Assembly: GCA_937870855.1 (NCBI GenBank)
Contig: CALMWT010000125.1
Coordinates: 1-64,000 of the forward strand
Reading direction: 5' to 3'
DNA length: 64,000 nt
Origin: an uncultured Taibaiella sp.
Lineage (GTDB): Bacteria; Bacteroidota; Bacteroidia; Chitinophagales; Chitinophagaceae
Part shown: positions 50,852-59,926 of the stretch, in pieces
Position numbering within the stretch: the first letter of the stretch is position 1
Layout of the letters: every line of letters begins with the position of its first letter
The notes under the pieces: generated by a model
Told to the model about the DNA's origin: nothing
What the model saw: only the letters and a program-made list of their open reading frames with translations
The model's database searches: none
Translations under genes and position numbers: made by a program

Positions 50852-51589
50852 TTAGTAAACAGCATATTCACTTTGATAGCACCGGGATGCCTTTATCAAT
50901 ACCGGCATATTTGTGATTTTTATTTTTTTTCCGCAGAAAGCTACCACGCCTTCATGCTTCAATTCAGACAGTAAGCGTATTGCTGTTTCTGTGGCTGTGC
51001 CTACAAGGTCGGCGATCTCCTCTCTTGTCAGCGCTATATTGATAGTTGCATTATCCTCCTCAAGCCCATAAGTATTTTTCAAAAAGAGCAAAGCTTTTGC
51101 CATTCTTTCTCTCACCGGATTTTGCGCCAGTTCTGTAAGATGATCTTCTGCTTTACGGAGATCTGAAGCTAACAACCTTATAAAACTTTGCGCAAGATGA
51201 TTGTTGGATTGCAACGCTGTATTGAAAACATCTTTAGGAATGAAGCAGATATTAGTGTCTTCAATAGCCACCGCCGTGGCGTTGTATTTTTCGTTGCAAA
51301 AAAGTGCGCGGTAACCGATAATATTTCCCGCCTTCGCCATACGAACTATTTGCATTTTTCCCTCGTCCCCACTTCGTTCCAGTTTTACCTTGCCGTCATC
51401 AATGCAATAAACACCAAGCGGATAATTTCCTTCATTGAAAATGTGTTGTCCCTTTTTGAAAACAAGGCAGGACTTGTGTTCATCAAACAATTGCAATTCC
51501 ACTGCTGTAAGACAAGAAAAAATAGACTGGTGCATTACATCGCATTCTGGTAATACTGTCTCCCGCAAATACTTGTATGACTTTCTCAC
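50852..51589 (-). CDS. Crp/Fnr-family transcriptional regulator
   Basis: Predicted 245 aa from a GTG at 51589; an internal ATG at 51535 is an alternative start. A cNMP-binding-like domain (about 30–150; GVYCIDDGKVKLERSG, IIGYRALFCN) and a Crp helix-turn-helix (about 165–230; LTREEIADLVGTATETAIRL) are clear. N-terminal Cys residues (PECDVMHQSIFSC) do not match the CxxC spacing of Fnr Fe–S clusters. The upstream intergenic region has three TGAT-N4-RTCA motifs, consistent with autoregulation and control of the divergent fasciclin gene. Confidence 0.9.
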   Translation of the reverse strand: MRKSYKYLRETVLPECDVMHQSIFSCLTAVELQLFDEHKSCLVFKKGQHIFNEGNYPLGVYCIDDGKVKLERSGDEGKMQIVRMAKAGNIIGYRALFCNEKYNATAVAIEDTNICFIPKDVFNTALQSNNHLAQSFIRLLASDLRKAEDHLTELAQNPVRERMAKALLFLKNTYGLEEDNATINIALTREEIADLVGTATETAIRLLSELKHEGVVAFCGKKIKITNMPVLIKASRCYQSEYAVY

Positions 51590-51647: not shown

Positions 51648-51659
51648 TGATGTTCGTCA
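51648..51659. promoter_or_regulatory. Putative Crp/Fnr-type operator 1
   Basis: TGATGTTCGTCA, centre about 51653.5, flanked by C and G (CTGA…TCAG). It lies 59 bases upstream of the crp start. One of four sites sharing TGAT-N4-RTCA. Confidence 0.5.
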
Positions 51660-51795: not shown

Positions 51796-52353
51796 ATGAA
51801 GAAGCTTTCATTAATCGCCACAATTGCATTTGCAACAATTGTAGTTAGTTGTTCAGAAAACAAAACTGCTACACAAGAAAATGAAGTCACTCAGACCGAA
51901 AACTCAACTGCTGGTCAGTCTGGTGTACAGGATGACGTAAGCCAGAAAAACATTGTACAGGCTGCAATGGGTAGTAAAGATCACTCCACTCTTGTAGCAG
52001 CAGTTAAGCAAGCAGAACTTGTAGATGCCCTTAGCAATGCCGGTCCATTTACAGTTTTTGCTCCGGTAAATGCAGCTTTCGATGCACTGCCCGCAGGTAC
52101 TGTGGACGATTTGATGAAGAATGAGAATAAGGAAAAACTCACTGACATCTTACAATACCATGTTTCAATTGGTGTTTTTAAAGAAGAAATGCTTCAGGAA
52201 GGACAAAGCATCGGGCAGGCAAATGGCAGCAACATTACCATTAGTAAAAAGGACGGTCAGATAGTGGTAAACGGAAAAGCTAAAGTGCTCGCGGCTATTC
52301 CGGTTTCTAACGGACTTATTTATGCAATAGATCAGGTATTGTTGCCTCAATAA
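51796..52353 (+). CDS. Fasciclin-domain lipoprotein
   Basis: Predicted 185 aa. A lipoprotein signal ends at IVVSCSEN (Cys near 19). A low-complexity Thr/Glu linker is followed by one fasciclin (FAS1) domain (about 55–185) with the H1 motif GPFTVFAPVNAAFDAL and the C-terminal NGLIYAIDQVLLP. FAS1 domains mediate surface adhesion and are often near respiratory genes in Bacteroidota. It is followed by a strong terminator and preceded by a putative Crp-type operator. Confidence 0.92.
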   Translation: MKKLSLIATIAFATIVVSCSENKTATQENEVTQTENSTAGQSGVQDDVSQKNIVQAAMGSKDHSTLVAAVKQAELVDALSNAGPFTVFAPVNAAFDALPAGTVDDLMKNENKEKLTDILQYHVSIGVFKEEMLQEGQSIGQANGSNITISKKDGQIVVNGKAKVLAAIPVSNGLIYAIDQVLLPQ

Positions 52354-52409: not shown

Positions 52410-52446
52410 CGATTTACATCACTTTGACATCCATCAGTCTTGCTTA

Positions 52447-52458
52447 TGATTTTTGTCA
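52447..52458. promoter_or_regulatory. Putative Crp/Fnr-type operator 4, upstream of norC
   Basis: TGATTTTTGTCA within TATGATTTTTGTCATA (52445–52460), 44 bases before the norC GTG. The same motif occurs three times upstream of crp and the fasciclin gene. Confidence 0.5.
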
Positions 52459-52502: not shown

Positions 52503-52898
52503 GTGAGAAAGATCCTTCTGATATTGTCTGTTGTTTTTGCACTGTATTCGTTCGCCGTGTATGCTTTCAGCGATGTGCAAAGAAAAAACAAACCATCAGA
52601 TGAAGTGACCGCCGGTTGGAAAACATGGCAGGAAAAAAATTGCCAGAGTTGCCATCAGCTTTATGGACTTGGCGGCTACATGGGACCCGACCTTACCAAC
52701 ACGGCTTCCGATAAAGGAAAGGAATACATGCGCAGCTTTATTCGATATGGAACCGGAAAAATGCCCAACTTTCATTTGAATGAGCAAGAAGTAAACGAGT
52801 TGCTTGCATTCCTTAGTTGGGTAGATAAATCCGGTCGTTCTAAAGTAGCTGATTCGCTTGTACACTGGACTGGAAGTTATAGGATATCGAAACGATGA
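52503..52898 (+). CDS. norC: NorC-like membrane-anchored cytochrome c
   Basis: Predicted 131 aa from a GTG at 52503. One N-terminal membrane anchor (about 3–21) precedes a cytochrome c domain with heme site KNCQSCHQLYGLGG near residue 46–59 and a distal Met in GTGKMPNFHL near 85–94. It is expected to deliver electrons to the NorB-like subunit from the periplasmic side. It overlaps norB by 4 bases (ATGA). The naming follows the gene pair; see the NorB entry for the caution about active-site residues. Confidence 0.85.
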   Translation: MRKILLILSVVFALYSFAVYAFSDVQRKNKPSDEVTAGWKTWQEKNCQSCHQLYGLGGYMGPDLTNTASDKGKEYMRSFIRYGTGKMPNFHLNEQEVNELLAFLSWVDKSGRSKVADSLVHWTGSYRISKR

Positions 52899-54286
52899 GT
52901 AGGAGTCATAAAATATTTATAGGCTTTGCGCTTGCCCTGTTGTTGACCACATTGTTCTTCGGCATGATCGCTTCATTTGCATTTCTGTATCCTGAAGTTT
53001 ACAACAAATATTTACCGTTTTATCAGTTGCGGCCCATGCACGTTTCCGCTGCATTATTCTGGATTATTACGGGCGCAACTGCGGGAATTCTTCACTTCAA
53101 AAAAGATGTATTTCAGGCAAAAGAAACAACATCTGAAAAAGTTTTTATTTACCTGTGGATTGCAACCGTAGTGAGCATTTTTATCTTTTATGCCTTTAAA
53201 AAATTCGGAGGAAGAGAATATTGGGAGTTCCCTCCTTTTTTAGGTATTCCTATTCTTATTGCATGGCTAAGTTTGATGTTTGGATATTTCCAAGCATGGA
53301 CTAAGCGAACAAAAAATCCGCCTTTGTATGTATGGCAATGGTCAACGGGTATTGTCTTCTTCCTCATTACTTTCCTCGAGCAAAACCTTTATCAGATTCC
53401 CTGGTTTCGACAATCATTTCTTACAGAAATAACAATACAGTGGAAATCTAACGGAGCAATGGTAGGTGCGTGGAATCAAATGATTTACGGTACAGCCTTG
53501 TTTATAATGACACGCATACTGGGTGATGAAAGCGTTGCCATTTCCAAACGTGCATTCGCATTTTACTTTATCGGTCTCACCAATCTGATGCTCAACTGGG
53601 GACACCATATTTATAATCTTCCCGCCACATCTTTTATCCGCCATACTGCCTATGCTGTAAGCATGACCGAGTGGATAATTTTCATAGCTATCTGCATGGA
53701 TTTCAGGAGCAAGTTGAGTGAGGCCCGCAAGTTTAAACATCTGATTGCGCACCGCTTTATGATGTATGCAGAGTTTTGGGTCTATCTCAATCTGTTTCTT
53801 GCATTGCTCATGAGTATTCCCGCCATCAACCGTTACACTCATGGCACACACATAACGGTGGCACATGCAATGGGTGCAACCATCGGCATCAACACAATGA
53901 TTTTATTGGGATCTTTAGGCTACATTTTGAAAGTGGATGAGCTGCATGAAAGCAATCGAAAAATGATTTTGAAAGGATTATCAATTGCTAAGATCAGCCT
54001 TCTGGTTTTCTGGCTTGCACTTGTAGTTGCAGGTCTGCTAAAAGGCTATCGGGATGTAGCGCTGGGCATGACCAATTTTCAGGAAATGATGCAGCCCGTA
54101 ATTACATCGCTGAAAGTATTTTCATTTGCCGGAATTTCCCTTTTTGCAGGCATTGCTATTATCTGTTGGAACTATTTTATTGCGTTAAAGAAATACCACA
54201 CCCCTCCCCAAAATATTTTGATTGATAGCGCAGCTTTAAAGCTTGTGAAAAAACAGAAACTGGAACAAGTAATTGAACAAATATGA
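52895..54286 (+). CDS. norB: NorB-like heme-copper oxidoreductase with divergent ligand motifs
   Basis: Predicted 463 aa with about 12 membrane helices, the size of cNOR NorB. The low-spin heme His of TM2 is present (LRPMHVSAALFW), and so is the FeB His pair (NWGHHIYNLP). Two expected motifs differ: where cNOR has HLWVEG (FeB His and catalytic Glu) this protein shows VGAWNQMIYG, and the TM10 HAH pair reads THITVAHAMGA, giving one His and a Met. It should reduce NO to N2O with electrons from the cytochrome, or act as a divergent relative. It overlaps norC and is one base before the hemerythrin gene. Confidence 0.75.
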   Translation: MSRSHKIFIGFALALLLTTLFFGMIASFAFLYPEVYNKYLPFYQLRPMHVSAALFWIITGATAGILHFKKDVFQAKETTSEKVFIYLWIATVVSIFIFYAFKKFGGREYWEFPPFLGIPILIAWLSLMFGYFQAWTKRTKNPPLYVWQWSTGIVFFLITFLEQNLYQIPWFRQSFLTEITIQWKSNGAMVGAWNQMIYGTALFIMTRILGDESVAISKRAFAFYFIGLTNLMLNWGHHIYNLPATSFIRHTAYAVSMTEWIIFIAICMDFRSKLSEARKFKHLIAHRFMMYAEFWVYLNLFLALLMSIPAINRYTHGTHITVAHAMGATIGINTMILLGSLGYILKVDELHESNRKMILKGLSIAKISLLVFWLALVVAGLLKGYRDVALGMTNFQEMMQPVITSLKVFSFAGISLFAGIAIICWNYFIALKKYHTPPQNILIDSAALKLVKKQKLEQVIEQI

Positions 54287-54287
54287 C

Positions 54288-54776
54288 ATGGAAACAAAAC
54301 CAATAAAACGCAGCAAAGAATTAATGCAGCTTTCCCGAGATCATCATGAAGGATTGTTGCTTTGCTGGAAGATAAGAACGGGTTTAAAAAACGATACAGA
54401 GCTGAACAGAATTGAGGAATATGTACTTTATTTTTTTGAACATCATCTCAAAGAACATTTCAGGCAGGAAGAAGAAATTTTGTTTCCCGTACTCGAAGAA
54501 AAGCATCCGATGAAAATCGAAGTGCTGGCGCAGCATAATGACATCTATGCAATGATCGAGGAAATGAAAAAAACGAACAAAGATGCGGAAAGATTGAAAA
54601 AGTTCGCAGACCATCTTGATGATCATATACGATTTGAAGAGCGAAAATTATTTCCCTACATCGAATCAAATACATACGCAGAACAGCTTGAAGCAACAGG
54701 AAAAAAATTGGAAATAGCTCATCAGCAGCAATTGCCACTGATCTGGACAGATGAATTTTGGCTAAAAAATAAATAG
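54288..54776 (+). CDS. Hemerythrin-domain protein
   Basis: Predicted 162 aa from the ATG at 54288, one base after the norB stop; an upstream in-frame TTG would overlap norB. The metal ligands fit the hemerythrin pattern: LSRDHHEGLLLCW (His), FEHHLKEHFRQEEEILFPVL (His, Glu) and DDHIRFEERKLFPYIE (His, Glu). It likely binds O2 or NO at a di-iron site in the cytoplasm. Position inside the nor operon points to NO or oxygen handling. Confidence 0.9.
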   Translation: METKPIKRSKELMQLSRDHHEGLLLCWKIRTGLKNDTELNRIEEYVLYFFEHHLKEHFRQEEEILFPVLEEKHPMKIEVLAQHNDIYAMIEEMKKTNKDAERLKKFADHLDDHIRFEERKLFPYIESNTYAEQLEATGKKLEIAHQQQLPLIWTDEFWLKNK

Positions 54777-54779
54777 GAA

Positions 54780-55211
54780 ATGTTTTCAAAAGCTTGTGAG
54801 TACGGAATTAGAGCAACAGTTTATATAGCTGCCGAAACAGTGAATGGATCGAAGGTGGGCATTGACGAAATATGCGCTCATATCGAAGCGCCGAAACACT
54901 TCACGGCAAAAATTTTGCAGGTACTTACCAGACATGAAATTGTTAGTTCTCAGAAAGGTGTAAACGGGGGTTTTTATATAGACCCTCAACAGCAACGTAT
55001 GCCTATCAAATTGATTGTTGAAGCAATTGATGGCAACAAACTATTTATCGGTTGCGGACTCGGATTGAAACAGTGTTCAGAAGAAAGACCTTGTCCGCTT
55101 CATCACCAGTTTGTAGGCATACGGGAAGCTCTGAACAAGATGATGGATGAAACGACTATTGACAGGCTGGCGGTGAAATTGAAAAATGGAGAAATCGTTT
55201 TGATGCACTAA
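54780..55211 (+). CDS. Rrf2-family regulator, NsrR-like
   Basis: Predicted 143 aa. The N-terminal winged helix (MFSKACEYGIRATVYIAAET) is typical of Rrf2. Three cysteines, GCGLGLKQCSEERPC, are spaced C-x6-C-x5-C near residues 91–105, close to the C-x7-C-x5-C of NsrR, which holds an NO-sensitive Fe–S cluster. It lies between the hemerythrin gene and a membrane protein, three bases from the hemerythrin stop. It should repress NO-defence genes until NO destroys its cluster; the target sites are not identified. Confidence 0.88.
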   Translation: MFSKACEYGIRATVYIAAETVNGSKVGIDEICAHIEAPKHFTAKILQVLTRHEIVSSQKGVNGGFYIDPQQQRMPIKLIVEAIDGNKLFIGCGLGLKQCSEERPCPLHHQFVGIREALNKMMDETTIDRLAVKLKNGEIVLMH

Positions 55212-55244: not shown

Positions 55245-56510
55245 ATGTCCTTAATTATGAAAGCACTGGAAAAATGGACAGGCATAGCGCTTATTAACCT
55301 TGCAATAGTAGCACTACTTGGATTTGTGATGCGGTGTAAGATGATCTTTTCTATTCCTTTCCTCGACTTTAAATACACGCTTCATGCACATTCCCATTTT
55401 GCCTTTGGGGGTTGGGTAACACTTGCACTGCTTGCATTAACGGCCTATCAAATCTTACCAAAAGAAGCAGCGCAAAAAAAGATTTATAAATGGCTGTTCT
55501 TCGGCATTCAATTTAATGCTGTGGGAATGCTTTTAAGCTTCCCGTTTCAAGGATACGGCTTCTTCTCTATTCTGTTCTCCACGCTGTTCATTTTTGTAAC
55601 CTATGGTTACACTTTCGTTTTCATACGCGATGTAAGAAAGGCTCCGGTCGCACGATCTGTAAAGTTGCTTTCTATCGCCGCGGTAGTGTATATGGCGTTG
55701 TCATCCGTAGGTGCATTTACACTTGCCTATCTGCTTGCTTCAAAATCCTCGAACATGTATCTCTATAAAGATGCCGTTTATACCTATCTGCATTTGCAGT
55801 ACAGTGGCTTTTTCACGCTCGCAGTTTTTGCTTTACTACTACATTATCTGAAGGTGGAAAATAAAACCACATGGCGGTTTGCACAGTTGCTTAACGCCTC
55901 CATTATTCCTTCCTTGTTCATTTCTTATCTGTGGCATTATCCGAGCGATATAATAAGAGGAATAGCAATTATAGGAAGCGGATTCATTGTAGTAAGCACT
56001 GTGTATTTCTTTTTAATTGTCGGAAATCTTCGGGAGGCATTTCTCACACTCAAGCCTACTGCAAAAATTCTGATCACCATATCCATGATCGCTTTTGTAT
56101 TCAAAATGATCTTTCAGGCATTGACTATTGTACCCTCATTAGGAACTATGGTATTTGCTAACAGACCGGTCATCATTGGCTTCCTTCATTTAGTCTTGCT
56201 GGCTTTTATCACCCTATATCTTATTGGTCATTTCGTACAATCGGAACTGATGCCGCACACAGGCTTAGCCGCTTTCGCAATATGGCTCTTCACTACCGGA
56301 GTGATCGTTACCGAAGTAGTGTTGTTTGGACAAGGACTTGGATTTATGCTGATGACAAGCATAGCGTTGGCAACCTGGTTGCTGCTCGCAGCCGCAGCAT
56401 GTTTGTTTGCAGGCGCGGTACTCATTGCTATTACACGCTGGAGAATAGGTGCCAACTTACAGATGAACTATAATGAACTAAAAACTTTTAAACAATTTTC
56501 TCAATCATAA
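55245..56510 (+). CDS. Polytopic heme-copper-oxidase-like membrane protein of unknown function
   Basis: Predicted 421 aa with about 12 hydrophobic segments. A cluster of histidines sits in an early helix (YTLHAHSHFAFGGWVTLA, near residues 45–62), another in YLHLQYSGFFTLAVFALLLH and in FLHLVLLAFITLYLIGHFV. The helix layout and His-in-helix placement resemble heme-binding subunit I relatives, but no HH or HxH pair is seen, so an active site is doubtful. It lies inside the nor operon (33-base gap from the Rrf2 gene, 13 to the RIC gene). It may be an NO-responsive heme protein or accessory factor. Confidence 0.6.
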   Translation: MSLIMKALEKWTGIALINLAIVALLGFVMRCKMIFSIPFLDFKYTLHAHSHFAFGGWVTLALLALTAYQILPKEAAQKKIYKWLFFGIQFNAVGMLLSFPFQGYGFFSILFSTLFIFVTYGYTFVFIRDVRKAPVARSVKLLSIAAVVYMALSSVGAFTLAYLLASKSSNMYLYKDAVYTYLHLQYSGFFTLAVFALLLHYLKVENKTTWRFAQLLNASIIPSLFISYLWHYPSDIIRGIAIIGSGFIVVSTVYFFLIVGNLREAFLTLKPTAKILITISMIAFVFKMIFQALTIVPSLGTMVFANRPVIIGFLHLVLLAFITLYLIGHFVQSELMPHTGLAAFAIWLFTTGVIVTEVVLFGQGLGFMLMTSIALATWLLLAAAACLFAGAVLIAITRWRIGANLQMNYNELKTFKQFSQS

Positions 56511-56523
56511 AAACAACTGAAAA

Positions 56524-57444
56524 ATGAACAACGTGTTTATTGATGTAACGGTGCTAGAACCAAGAATGAAGCACCCGACTATTTTCGATGCTTTCGACAA
56601 TGTAGCAGAAGGCGCAGCCGTAGTGATCCATAACGATCATGATCCTAAACCGCTCTACTATCAACTGCTCGGTGAGCGTGGCAACTGCTTCTCCTGGACC
56701 TATCTTTCAAACGGGCCGGAAATATGGGAAGTAGAAATAAAGAAGAATGCGAAGAACAGTGAAACAGTAGGTGAAATTGCTGCAAAAGATATGCGTAAGG
56801 CTGAACTCCTGAAAAAACTGGGCATTGATTTTTGCTGCGGCGGAAAAAAATCGCTTGAAGAAGCGTGTCAGGAAAAGGGACTGGATGTTCTTCGGGTAAA
56901 AAATGAATTGGAAGAAGCAGAAAAGAAACCTCAAACTGGGCCACAGCTTGATTTCAACACATTCAATCTTTCATTTCTTGCAGACTACATAGTGAATGTA
57001 CACCACGGTTATGTAACCCAATACGCACCCATCATCGAAGACCTTGCTCACAAAGTAGCAGGACATCATGGGGCAAATAATCCGTTCCTCGTAGAAGTTT
57101 ACAACAAGTTCAATGAACTTCGCTGCGAGCTGACCACACACATGAAAAAGGAAGAGCAAATTCTTTTCCCTTCCATAAAATTGCTGGAAAACGGAGGCAC
57201 TAAAATTGGCTTTGAAACAATCAACGATCCCATTTTTATGATGGAGCGCGACCACGATATTGCAGGCGAGTTGATGAGAGATATACGCCAACTGACCAGC
57301 GACTTTCAGGTTCCGGAAAATTCATGCAACAGCATAAAAATGTTGTACTACAAACTGGAAGAATTTGAGAACGATTTGCTGCAGCATATTCATCTCGAAA
57401 ACAACATTCTATTTCCGAAGGCAATGGCAATGGAAAAGAAATAG
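56524..57444 (+). CDS. Iron–sulfur repair protein RIC with N-terminal DUF2249 domain
   Basis: Predicted 306 aa. Residues about 1–75 are a DUF2249 domain (KHPTIFDAFDNVAEGAAVVI, GNCFSWTYLSNGPEIWEVEI). The ScdA_N motif GIDFCCGGKKSLEEAC follows at about 98–113, then a hemerythrin-like di-iron domain (about 145–300) with VHHGYVTQYAPIIEDLAHKV, THMKKEEQILFPSIK and QHIHLENNILFPKAM. The protein repairs Fe–S clusters damaged by NO or peroxide in the cytoplasm (YtfE/ScdA). The last codons (ATGGAAAAGAAATAG) are copied into the downstream tandem repeat. Confidence 0.93.
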   Translation: MNNVFIDVTVLEPRMKHPTIFDAFDNVAEGAAVVIHNDHDPKPLYYQLLGERGNCFSWTYLSNGPEIWEVEIKKNAKNSETVGEIAAKDMRKAELLKKLGIDFCCGGKKSLEEACQEKGLDVLRVKNELEEAEKKPQTGPQLDFNTFNLSFLADYIVNVHHGYVTQYAPIIEDLAHKVAGHHGANNPFLVEVYNKFNELRCELTTHMKKEEQILFPSIKLLENGGTKIGFETINDPIFMMERDHDIAGELMRDIRQLTSDFQVPENSCNSIKMLYYKLEEFENDLLQHIHLENNILFPKAMAMEKK

Positions 57445-57878: not shown

Positions 57879-58667
57879 ATGAATATCATTGATGCAAACA
57901 CAAAGATATCTGCCCTCATAAAGGCTAATCCCAAAGCAATAGATGCCATCGCAAGCATCAACGACCATTTCAAAAAACTATACAATCCCATTCTGCGAAA
58001 AATACTTGCTTCACGCGTTACCATTTCGGAAGCAGCAAAGATTGGCAAAGTGGATATCAGTGTGTTTTTTGAACGATTGAAACCACTAGGATTTGAGATA
58101 GATGAAACCGTGAAGACGAACATCATTTCAGGAAAAGTAGAGAAGGCGATTCGGTACGACAAGCTTTTAGACGTGCGCGAAGACCTCGCCTCAGGAAAAG
58201 ATCCTTTTAAGAAAATAATGGAGGAGGTGAATAACTTAGGCAAGGATGAAACACTGCTTCTGATCAATTCCTTTGAACCAATTCCACTGATAAGGATTTT
58301 AAACGACAGAGGATACGAAGCTGTTGTAAAAACGCTTGAAGATGAAATAGTGCATACTTACATTACACGTAGTGCTACGAGTATAAACAATGAAAATGCG
58401 CTGCCCGCTACAGACTTTGAAACCATACTAACACGCTACCAGGGAAAGATGCAGGAAATAGATGTTCGTGCATTGCCTATGCCGCAGCCCATGATGACCA
58501 TTTTGAAAGCAATAGAAACGCTTGATGCTGATAAAGCATTGTTTGTTTATCACAAAAAGGTGCCGCTGTTTTTACTGCCCGAACTGAAAGACCGGAATTT
58601 TTCCTTTGCCTATAAACAGGTGGAAGACGGTGTTCATCTTATCATTTACAAGGAGCAGACATCGTAG
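57879..58667 (+). CDS. DUF1858–DUF2249–DUF2249 protein
   Basis: Predicted 262 aa. The N-terminal part (about 1–65) matches DUF1858 (IIDANTKISALIKANPKAID). Two DUF2249-like segments follow: DETLLLINSFEPIPLIRILN (about 120–190) and ALPMPQPMMTILKAIETLDA to the C-terminus, both with TusA-like beta-alpha layout. DUF2249 also forms the N-terminus of the RIC protein just upstream, so the domain probably plays a shared role in this island (perhaps sulfur, NO or metal handling). It is co-directional with the next two genes and 19 bases past the tandem repeat. Confidence 0.75.
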   Translation: MNIIDANTKISALIKANPKAIDAIASINDHFKKLYNPILRKILASRVTISEAAKIGKVDISVFFERLKPLGFEIDETVKTNIISGKVEKAIRYDKLLDVREDLASGKDPFKKIMEEVNNLGKDETLLLINSFEPIPLIRILNDRGYEAVVKTLEDEIVHTYITRSATSINNENALPATDFETILTRYQGKMQEIDVRALPMPQPMMTILKAIETLDADKALFVYHKKVPLFLLPELKDRNFSFAYKQVEDGVHLIIYKEQTS

Positions 58668-58669
58668 CT

Positions 58670-59926
58670 ATGATGCCGCCACAAGACCATATTCCTTCGC
58701 GGTATGCTATACTACCCTACTATGCTACAGCAGCCGTAAGTTTTGTTTTAATAGGCTTCCTGTGCTTGTTATCTGCGCAGGCATTTACAGATCATTATTT
58801 TCAGCCAAAGCTTTTAGCCATTACCCATCTTGCTGTTCTTGGCTGGGCTACAATGGTCATTTTTGGTGCGAGCAATCAGCTTGCTCCGGTTATTTCTGAG
58901 CAAAGACTTTATTCCGAAAAAATTCCTGTTGCTGTTTTTCTTCTCAAGCTATCCGGCATGGCAATGCTCGTTACTTCCTTCTGGAACTTTTCTTTTACAT
59001 GGGTTGCATTTGCAGGCGGAGGCTTATTGCTTTTGTCGTTTTTACTCCATGCTTACAACCTGTTTGCAACCATTAAGAAAGCGGACAGCAATATCATCAA
59101 CGACTTTATACTCACAGCGCACGTGTGGCTGATACTTACAGCGATAATTGGGCTGATGCTGCTTATCAATCTGCGTTTCCCATTTTTACCCGAAGACCAT
59201 TTACACTATCTCAAGTTGCATGCTTCCATTGGCATGGCCGGTTGGTTTATGCAATTGGTAGTAGGTGTAAGCTCGCGGTTAGTGCCCATGTTTTTATTGA
59301 GTCAAAAAGAAGAAAAGAAACTGCTGACTATTACGTTTTACGCTTTCAACCTCTCACTGATACTTTTTCTGATGGAAGGCATGGTGTTTAAAAGCACTTT
59401 AGGCAGGCCTCTTTATTTGCTCATCTTTCTGATAGGTATAACTTGTTACCTGCGCTATATATGGCAATGCCACAAAACAGCTATGCGCAAGCAAACCGAC
59501 CAGGGAATGAAGCAGACATTTCTGGCTTTGTTTCTATTGTCCATTCCGTTTTTATTGCTGCTGTTTATTCTGTTTGCCGGAAATAAAATACCGGTACAAG
59601 TTTTCACTGCTTATGGCTTTGCTTATTTCTTTGGTTTCATCAGTGTCATCATCATGGCGCAAACTTTCAAAACACTGCCCTTCATCGTGTGGATGCACAT
59701 CCAGAAACCAAATCAGCTACCAGAACTTATGCCCAAAGACTTGTTTAATGAACGATGGGTGAAATGGCAGATGCTTCTTTACCTGCCTGGCTTCCTGCTT
59801 TTTCTTGCAGGCATTTTGCTACAACATGTATTGCTGTTGTATTCGGGCAGCGTGTTAATGATAGTTGCTGCTGCTTTCTATTGCTTTCATGTTTTCAGAA
59901 TGCTCTTAAAACTAAAAACCAAATGA
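58670..59926 (+). CDS. Second polytopic heme-copper-oxidase-like membrane protein
   Basis: Predicted 418 aa with about 12 hydrophobic segments. Histidines lie in helices: LLAITHLAVLGWATMVIF (near 45–62), LTAHVWLILTAII, HYLKLHASIGMAGWFMQLV and LLQHVLLLYSG. It is not NnrS by obvious motifs and has no HH pair. It begins 2 bases after the DUF1858–DUF2249 gene stop and its TGA overlaps the SufT-like ATG, so it is tightly co-translated. Together with the 421-aa protein upstream, two such membrane proteins sit in the NO island. Function unknown. Confidence 0.6.
   Translation: MMPPQDHIPSRYAILPYYATAAVSFVLIGFLCLLSAQAFTDHYFQPKLLAITHLAVLGWATMVIFGASNQLAPVISEQRLYSEKIPVAVFLLKLSGMAMLVTSFWNFSFTWVAFAGGGLLLLSFLLHAYNLFATIKKADSNIINDFILTAHVWLILTAIIGLMLLINLRFPFLPEDHLHYLKLHASIGMAGWFMQLVVGVSSRLVPMFLLSQKEEKKLLTITFYAFNLSLILFLMEGMVFKSTLGRPLYLLIFLIGITCYLRYIWQCHKTAMRKQTDQGMKQTFLALFLLSIPFLLLLFILFAGNKIPVQVFTAYGFAYFFGFISVIIMAQTFKTLPFIVWMHIQKPNQLPELMPKDLFNERWVKWQMLLYLPGFLLFLAGILLQHVLLLYSGSVLMIVAAAFYCFHVFRMLLKLKTK

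What the first reader, a model, noticed from the sequence alone, without database searches (positions are those of the whole stretch)
52895..54286. NorB-like protein lacks two canonical heme-copper ligand motifs
Next to a NorC-like cytochrome c is a 12-helix protein of NorB size. The TM2 His (RPMHVSAALFW) and the FeB His pair (GHHIYN) are there. The expected HLWVEG is replaced by VGAWNQMIYG, and the TM10 HAH reads HAM. By alignment to the known cNOR pattern this would remove one FeB His, the catalytic Glu and the second low-spin heme His, the latter possibly replaced by Met. It could be a new class of NO reductase with a Gln-based site and a His/Met heme, or an NO sensor.
Basis: partly seen in the sequence, partly recalled or inferred. 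Interest (0 to 1): 0.72.

Follow-up and report, generated by a model that had tools for sequence, protein, structure and literature searches.

The report
NorB-like protein with altered metal site
A family of membrane proteins in Bacteroidota resembles the bacterial enzyme that turns nitric oxide into nitrous oxide and usually occurs in genomes that can destroy nitrous oxide, yet all members lack metal-binding residues thought essential, so they may be an overlooked kind of nitric-oxide-handling enzyme.

Summary
The 463-aa protein (52895-54286) is a NorB/CcoN-type heme-copper fold with a NorC-like cytochrome c gene upstream. The helix-6 metal-ligand His, the adjacent catalytic Glu and the second low-spin-heme His are absent; Met (M326) takes the last position. 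This is a family trait: among 79 Bacteroidota members (four fragmentary), every one covering a site has Gly in the His column, Met in place of the heme His, and keeps the TM2 His, the His pair and the heme b3 His. The family is its own clade, sister to cNOR+qNOR. "Gln at the FeB site" is not supported: Q195 is Met in 18 of 77.

Context points to NO/N2O. The operon carries RIC, hemerythrin and Rrf2 genes, with Crp/Fnr-type boxes upstream. It often lies within 16 kb of a clade II nosZ operon with the same boxes; nosZ is over-represented in carrier genomes (27/33 versus 130/316, p = 6e-6). Family loci lack the norQ/norD genes of canonical loci. Best reading: a divergent NorBC complex acting on NO with a His/Met heme b and a two-His (or empty) non-heme site; the activity is inferred. 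A second operon gene (55245-56510), invisible by sequence, is predicted to have the same fold.

The parts
52895..54286 (+). NorB-like heme-copper-fold subunit, 463 aa, lacking the TM6 FeB/CuB His, the FeB Glu and the second low-spin heme His
52503..52898 (+). NorC-like membrane-anchored monoheme cytochrome c (CQSCH), partner subunit
   Evidence: PDB NorC hit E 4e-11; present upstream in 46 of 49 loci; canonical NorC as query hits 46 of 46
53039..53041 (+). codon of H49, TM2 low-spin heme ligand, kept
53453..53455 (+). codon of G187, in the column of the TM6 FeB/CuB His; Gly in 77 of 77
53474..53476 (+). codon of N194, in the column of the second catalytic Glu (cNOR E215 / AxqNOR E494); invariant
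53603..53608 (+). codons of H237 and H238, the FeB/CuB His pair, kept
53669..53671 (+). codon of E259, column of AxqNOR E559 / cNOR E280, kept
53864..53866 (+). codon of H324, heme b3 proximal ligand, kept
53870..53872 (+). codon of M326, Met in place of the second low-spin heme His
52425..52458 (.). two TGA-N6-TCA Crp/Fnr-type boxes (52425-52436, 52447-52458) upstream of the cytochrome c gene
50852..51589 (-). Crp/Fnr-family regulator, possible reader of the boxes; further boxes at 51648, 51670 and 51730
54273..54776 (+). hemerythrin-domain protein
   Evidence: PF01814; in 18 family loci
54780..55211 (+). Rrf2-family regulator
   Evidence: PF02082; in 24 family loci
55245..56510 (+). 421-aa membrane protein with no sequence match but a predicted heme-copper subunit I fold
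   Evidence: in 23 family loci
56524..57444 (+). RIC/ScdA-type iron-sulfur cluster repair di-iron protein with DUF2249
   Evidence: TIGR03652 above cut-off; in 22 family loci
57879..58667 (+). DUF1858/DUF2249 protein
   Evidence: in 8 family loci
58670..59926 (+). 418-aa polytopic protein without family match
   Evidence: in 7 family loci

Best explanation
It is the catalytic-fold subunit of a divergent NorBC-type complex, a Bacteroidota family sister to cNOR+qNOR, that acts on nitric oxide. Shown: a predicted heme-copper subunit I fold, a conserved NorC-like partner, kept ligands for heme b3 (H324), for one side of the low-spin heme (H49) and two of three FeB ligands (H237, H238), and loss of the third FeB His, the FeB Glu and the second heme b His. 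Inferred: electrons pass from the cytochrome c to a high-potential His49/Met326 heme b and on to heme b3; beside it lies a two-His non-heme metal, or no metal, helped by invariant N194, Y240, E259, K184 and E162. It most likely reduces NO to N2O, which the often neighbouring and similarly controlled clade II NosZ can reduce to N2, protecting an N2O-respiring cell from NO.
For: Fold: VIA Z 41 to cbb3 CcoN, 38-40 to cNOR NorB. NorC-type partner in 46 of 49 loci. Clade beside cNOR+qNOR, 95/85. No cross-link Tyr, so not an O2 reductase by sequence. RIC, hemerythrin and Rrf2 genes in the operon. nosZ in 27 of 33 carriers against 130 of 316 others, p = 6e-6; within 16 kb in 14 of 28 and 8 of 25 genomes. 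Shared TGA-N6-TCA boxes. Own genome has no other NOR-type heme-copper gene and 25 of 33 carriers lack cNOR/qNOR. Within about 1 kb of a qNOR gene in G397 and G454.
Against: FeB with three His plus Glu is held to be needed for NO coupling, and mutating the Glu impairs known NORs; here His and Glu are both gone. No norQ/norD in the loci. No activity, spectrum or structure. The model holds no cofactors and no coordinates were available, so what fills the ligand gap is unknown. Few carriers have nirK and none convincingly nirS, so the source of NO would be external or chemical.
Confidence: 0.5

Rival explanations
1. NO-binding, non-catalytic complex: heme b3 binds NO as a sink or redox sensor and the cytochrome c resets or reports its state; catalysis was lost together with the FeB ligands.
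For: Loss of FeB His and Glu and of the norQ/norD neighbours; regulators Rrf2 and Crp/Fnr in or beside the operon.
Against: The His pair, Y240, E259 and N194 stay invariant, which a dead site would not need; no signalling domain or conserved cytosolic tail; invariant electron-transfer partner.
Confidence: 0.2
2. Reductase or oxidase of another small substrate (for example nitrite, hydroxylamine or a sulfur species) using heme b3 and a rebuilt pocket with Lys, Asn and two His.
For: Invariant charged and polar residues found in no reference family (E162, K184, N194, N230); 25 of 33 carriers keep it without other NORs and mostly without nirK.
Against: NO-specific neighbours and the link to nosZ; closest clade is cNOR+qNOR.
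Confidence: 0.15
3. Electron-transfer module for NosZ: the complex moves electrons between quinol, heme b and cytochrome c for N2O reduction and has no chemistry of its own.
For: Linkage and shared Crp/Fnr-type boxes with the nos operon.
Against: 130 genomes of the order sample have nosZ without this gene and 6 have the gene without a detected nosZ; the nos operon carries its own cytochrome c; an invariant heme b3 ligand and His pair would not be needed.
Confidence: 0.1

Closest known systems
cNOR, cytochrome c-dependent NO reductase (NorCB; PDB 3o0r, 4xyd)
   Same: Separate NorC-type cytochrome c plus 12-helix NorB fold; TM2 His, TM7 His pair, heme b3 His, Ca-site Glu (GREFLE/GREYWE) and E280-type Glu kept.
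   Different: TM6 His to Gly, FeB Glu lost, second Glu to Asn, low-spin heme His to Met; separate clade; no norQ/norD in the loci.
qNOR, quinol-dependent NO reductase (PDB 6qq5, 3ayf)
   Same: Same fold and same order of heme sites; sister side of the tree together with cNOR.
   Different: No fused N-terminal domain; a real cytochrome c partner; ligand losses as above.
cbb3 oxygen reductase subunit CcoN
   Same: Highest structural Z (41); the QW motif and the spacing from the TM6 ligand column to the His pair match.
   Different: No TM6 His, no cross-link Tyr before the His pair, HxM instead of HxH, a single NorC-type partner instead of CcoO/CcoP.
Putative NO dismutase (NOD)
   Same: A NOR relative that has lost one FeB His and the catalytic Glu (His to Asn, Glu to Gln; PMC3413370).
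   Different: NOD is qNOR-like and, by that paper, keeps all other His; here another His is lost, no Gln is in the Glu column, and the low-spin heme His is Met.
sNOR, eNOR, gNOR, bNOR/CuANOR
   Same: Proposed or shown NO reductases of the same superfamily with changed active-site residues.
   Different: They are related to B-family oxidases (PMC11388526) and differ at the Tyr/Glu position (N, Q, D, N; PMC8756737); this family is C-family-like and has lost a metal ligand and a heme ligand.

Membership tests
Heme-copper oxidoreductase superfamily (by fold) | 12-helix subunit I fold | tested here: met
   AF2 model, Z 41 to CcoN and 38-40 to NorB; COX1 Pfam above cut-off
Heme-copper oxidoreductase superfamily (by ligands) | His sextet for low-spin heme, high-spin heme and CuB/FeB | tested here: not met
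   4 of 6 His; TM6 His to Gly, heme b His to Met
cNOR | NorC-type cytochrome c partner | tested here: met
cNOR | FeB ligands 3 His + Glu, and bis-His heme b | tested here: not met
cNOR | falls inside the cNOR clade | tested here: not met
   own clade 100/99 outside cNOR+qNOR
cNOR | norQ/norD accessory genes alongside | tested here: not met
   none in the family loci; no NorQ in own genome
cNOR | reduces NO to N2O | not testable with these tools
   needs the purified complex
qNOR | fused N-terminal cytochrome c-like domain with quinol as donor | tested here: not met
   463 aa, starts at TM1; separate cytochrome c
cbb3 / C-type oxygen reductase | His-Tyr cofactor and CuB His in TM6 | tested here: not met
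   no TM6 His; Leu231 at the Tyr position by the spacing used
NO dismutase | qNOR-type protein with His-pair His to Asn and Glu to Gln | tested here: not met
   His pair intact, no Gln at the Glu position, separate cytochrome c

The most novel reading that the evidence does not exclude
A new class of NO-converting heme-copper-fold enzyme that works with a His/Met low-spin heme and a two-His (or metal-free) non-heme site, assembled without linked NorQ/NorD and paired in its operon with a second, sequence-invisible heme-copper-fold protein; it would be the missing NO reductase of many Bacteroidota N2O reducers scored as lacking nor.
Probability: 0.35. Interest if true: 0.88.

Novelty: new variant of a known kind. 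Interest (0 to 1): 0.66.

Why it matters
Loss of a heme-copper metal ligand and a His-to-Met change at the low-spin heme, fixed across a whole family, would test how much of the NO reductase active site is really needed. Bacteroidota hold about half of the nosZ-without-nir genomes in a recent survey, and that survey removed sequences lacking conserved ligands (PMC12569097), so this family would probably have been missed. If it reduces NO, the NO and N2O budgets inferred from genomes of these N2O consumers change.

Tried and rejected
Shifted alignment with hidden His/Glu: rejected; no His between residues 67 and 237 and no Glu in TM6. Gln195 as FeB ligand: rejected, Met in 18 of 77. Asn186 as replacement ligand: unlikely, it is Tyr, Leu or Ser in 20 of 77. 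Single-gene error or pseudogene: rejected by 79 relatives. Cytochrome c fused to the NorB-like protein in L023/L024: looked so from ORF length, but it is a separate upstream ORF. H319 as substitute heme ligand: unlikely, it is also His in C-type rows that keep HxH. Profile-profile comparison of the 55245 protein with the NorB-like family found no sequence link; only the fold did. nirK/nirS co-occurrence is weak: 5 of 45 above the nirK cut-off and no convincing nirS. Murali et al. 2024 (PNAS), the main survey of NOR diversity, is not held, so an earlier mention there cannot be excluded; open-text searches found none.

Full report
What is there. The window lies on contig C125 of a 3.22-Mb draft genome; all close relatives are Bacteroidota. 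The ORF at 52895-54286 is complete and overlaps the end of a 131-aa cytochrome c gene, 52503-52898. Pfam gives COX1 at 75 bits. Single-sequence matches to solved NorB are weak (E 0.004), but the profile of 40 relatives reaches cNOR at 4e-17 and cbb3 at 8.5e-13. AlphaFold2 gives a confident model (pLDDT 85.9, pTM 0.87) that matches cbb3 CcoN (Z 41) and cNOR NorB (Z 38-40), well above other heme-copper proteins (about 31). The cytochrome c matches NorC.

Ligands. The ligand set described for qNOR is heme b His331/His631, heme b3 His629, FeB His486/537/538, catalytic Glu490, 494 and 559, Ca-site Glu407, and Glu410 (PMC13087809). Through the mapping is: His331 to H49, His629 to H324, His537/538 to H237/H238, Glu407/410 to E108/E111 and Glu559 to E259, all kept; His631 to M326; His486 to G187 (N186 if the cNOR spacing is used); Glu490 lost (V190 or a gap); Glu494 to N194. 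Nearly all reference rows have Trp exactly four residues before the TM6 His; here W183 is followed at +4 by G187, and the distance from G187 to the His pair equals that of cbb3. The position of the cbb3 cross-link Tyr, six residues before the His pair (from my knowledge of cbb3 and the cbb3 rows), is Leu231. All this rests on sequence; no coordinates or cofactors were available.

A family, not an accident. The first scan found 46 relatives, one filed as Azovibrio but nearly the same as a Bacteroidota locus. Its patterns included one TM6 peptide, so it could favour the motif; a profile search of 349 genomes of the same order, not tied to any motif, found 33 carriers. Among 79 members in all (four fragmentary), H49, E162, Q182, W183, K184, G187, V190, G191, W193, N194, N230, W235, H237, H238, Y240, M257, E259, W295, N312, H316, H324, M326 and N333 are invariant where covered; N186 and Q195 are not. 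A tree with 51 heme-copper sequences makes the family one clade (100/99) on a long stem, beside cNOR+qNOR (95/85); the program warns of long branches, so the sister relation is only moderately supported.

Surroundings. The cytochrome c gene is upstream in 46 of 49 loci; Rrf2 (24), the 55245 protein (23), RIC (22), hemerythrin (18) and a fasciclin gene (14) recur. RIC proteins repair iron centres damaged by nitrosative or oxidative stress (established knowledge of the family). Bacteroidota cNOR loci read norC-norB-norQ, with a norD-like ORF where the fetched stretch reaches that far; no norQ or norD homologue was found in the family loci, and no NorQ in the own genome.

Link to N2O reduction. 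A nosZ of the clade II model TIGR04246 lies on the same contig at 68739-70727. 38 of 44 first-scan genomes have a nosZ match. In the order sample 27 of 33 carriers have nosZ against 130 of 316 non-carriers (odds ratio 6.4, p = 6e-6; related genomes are not independent, so the p-value is optimistic). The two genes lie within 16 kb in 14 of 28 genomes where both were placed, and within about 12 kb in 8 of 25 of the order sample, where random placement in a 4-Mb genome would give about 1%. In the 11 contigs fetched because they were linked, the operon sits beside the nos operon cytochrome c-nosZ-membrane protein-nosL-nosD-nosF-nosY, convergent in most. TGA-N6-TCA boxes occur upstream of the cytochrome c gene in 46 of 65 distinct loci (3.6 expected by block shuffling; 9% of random 200-bp stretches) and in 7 of 7 nos upstream regions; other spacers give 1-2. 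In the window, boxes lie at 52425-52436 and 52447-52458, and others lie beside the Crp/Fnr gene. Which regulator binds them is not shown.

Other NO reductases. The own genome has only three COX1-family genes: an A-type oxidase, a fused cbb3 and this one. In the order sample 8 of 33 carriers also have a cNOR or qNOR; 25 do not. B-family NORs were not screened in that sample. In two genomes (G397, G454) the NorB-like gene lies within about 1 kb of a qNOR gene (coordinates).

A second hidden member of the fold. The gene at 55245-56510 has no convincing sequence match, but its model (pLDDT 87.1, pTM 0.88) has the full heme-copper subunit I fold: Z 34.9 to cbb3 CcoN over 403 residues, and only heme-copper proteins at Foldseek probability 1.00. 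Its invariant residues include H47, H49, H51, H183 and H315, with H231 nearly so. What it binds is unknown.

How it probably works. Electrons from a periplasmic donor reach heme c of the NorC-like subunit, then a His/Met heme b, which should have a higher potential than a bis-His heme (general heme chemistry, inference), then heme b3, where NO binds. The second metal site has two His, so it may hold a different or weakly bound metal, or none; invariant K184, N194, Y240 and E259 may serve proton delivery or NO orientation. The context makes NO the likely substrate and N2O the likely product; turnover is not shown.

Prior knowledge. A 2025 survey of denitrification genes curated out sequences lacking conserved ligands and reported that Bacteroidota account for about half of the nosZ-without-nir genomes, with further nir+nosZ genomes lacking nor (PMC12569097). 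No open paper found describes this family. The PNAS 2024 NOR survey could not be read, so novelty is provisional.

Noticed in passing
55245-56510: Orphan 421-aa membrane protein with no family match but a predicted heme-copper subunit I fold (Z 34.9 to CcoN) and invariant HAHSH, H183 and H315; possibly a second degenerate heme-copper-type protein of the same operon.
   Followed up: partly
58670-59926: Polytopic 418-aa protein, looks NnrS-like by eye but matches no Pfam model; conserved in 7 family loci.
   Followed up: partly
L081:8092-8739 (contig C125 68092-68739, beyond the window): Membrane protein of about 216 aa next to nosZ, found in all 11 fetched nos operons, without any convincing Pfam match.
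   Followed up: no
L074, L076, L093, L094, L095: A clade of Bacteroidota qNORs reads SHNFYW: one FeB His of the pair is Asn, as described for NO dismutase, while the catalytic Glu is kept; sister to ordinary qNORs of the same phylum.
   Followed up: partly
L087, L088, L089, L097: B-type heme-copper subunits in some family genomes with Asn (L087-L089) or Gln (L097) four residues after the TM6 His, as in sNOR/bNOR or eNOR.
   Followed up: no
51796-52353: A fasciclin-domain lipoprotein-like gene next to the operon recurs near the family gene in 14 loci.
   Followed up: no
L037: Contig filed as Azovibrio restrictus (a MAG) whose genes and upstream boxes nearly equal Bacteroidota locus L016; probably a binning error.
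   Followed up: partly
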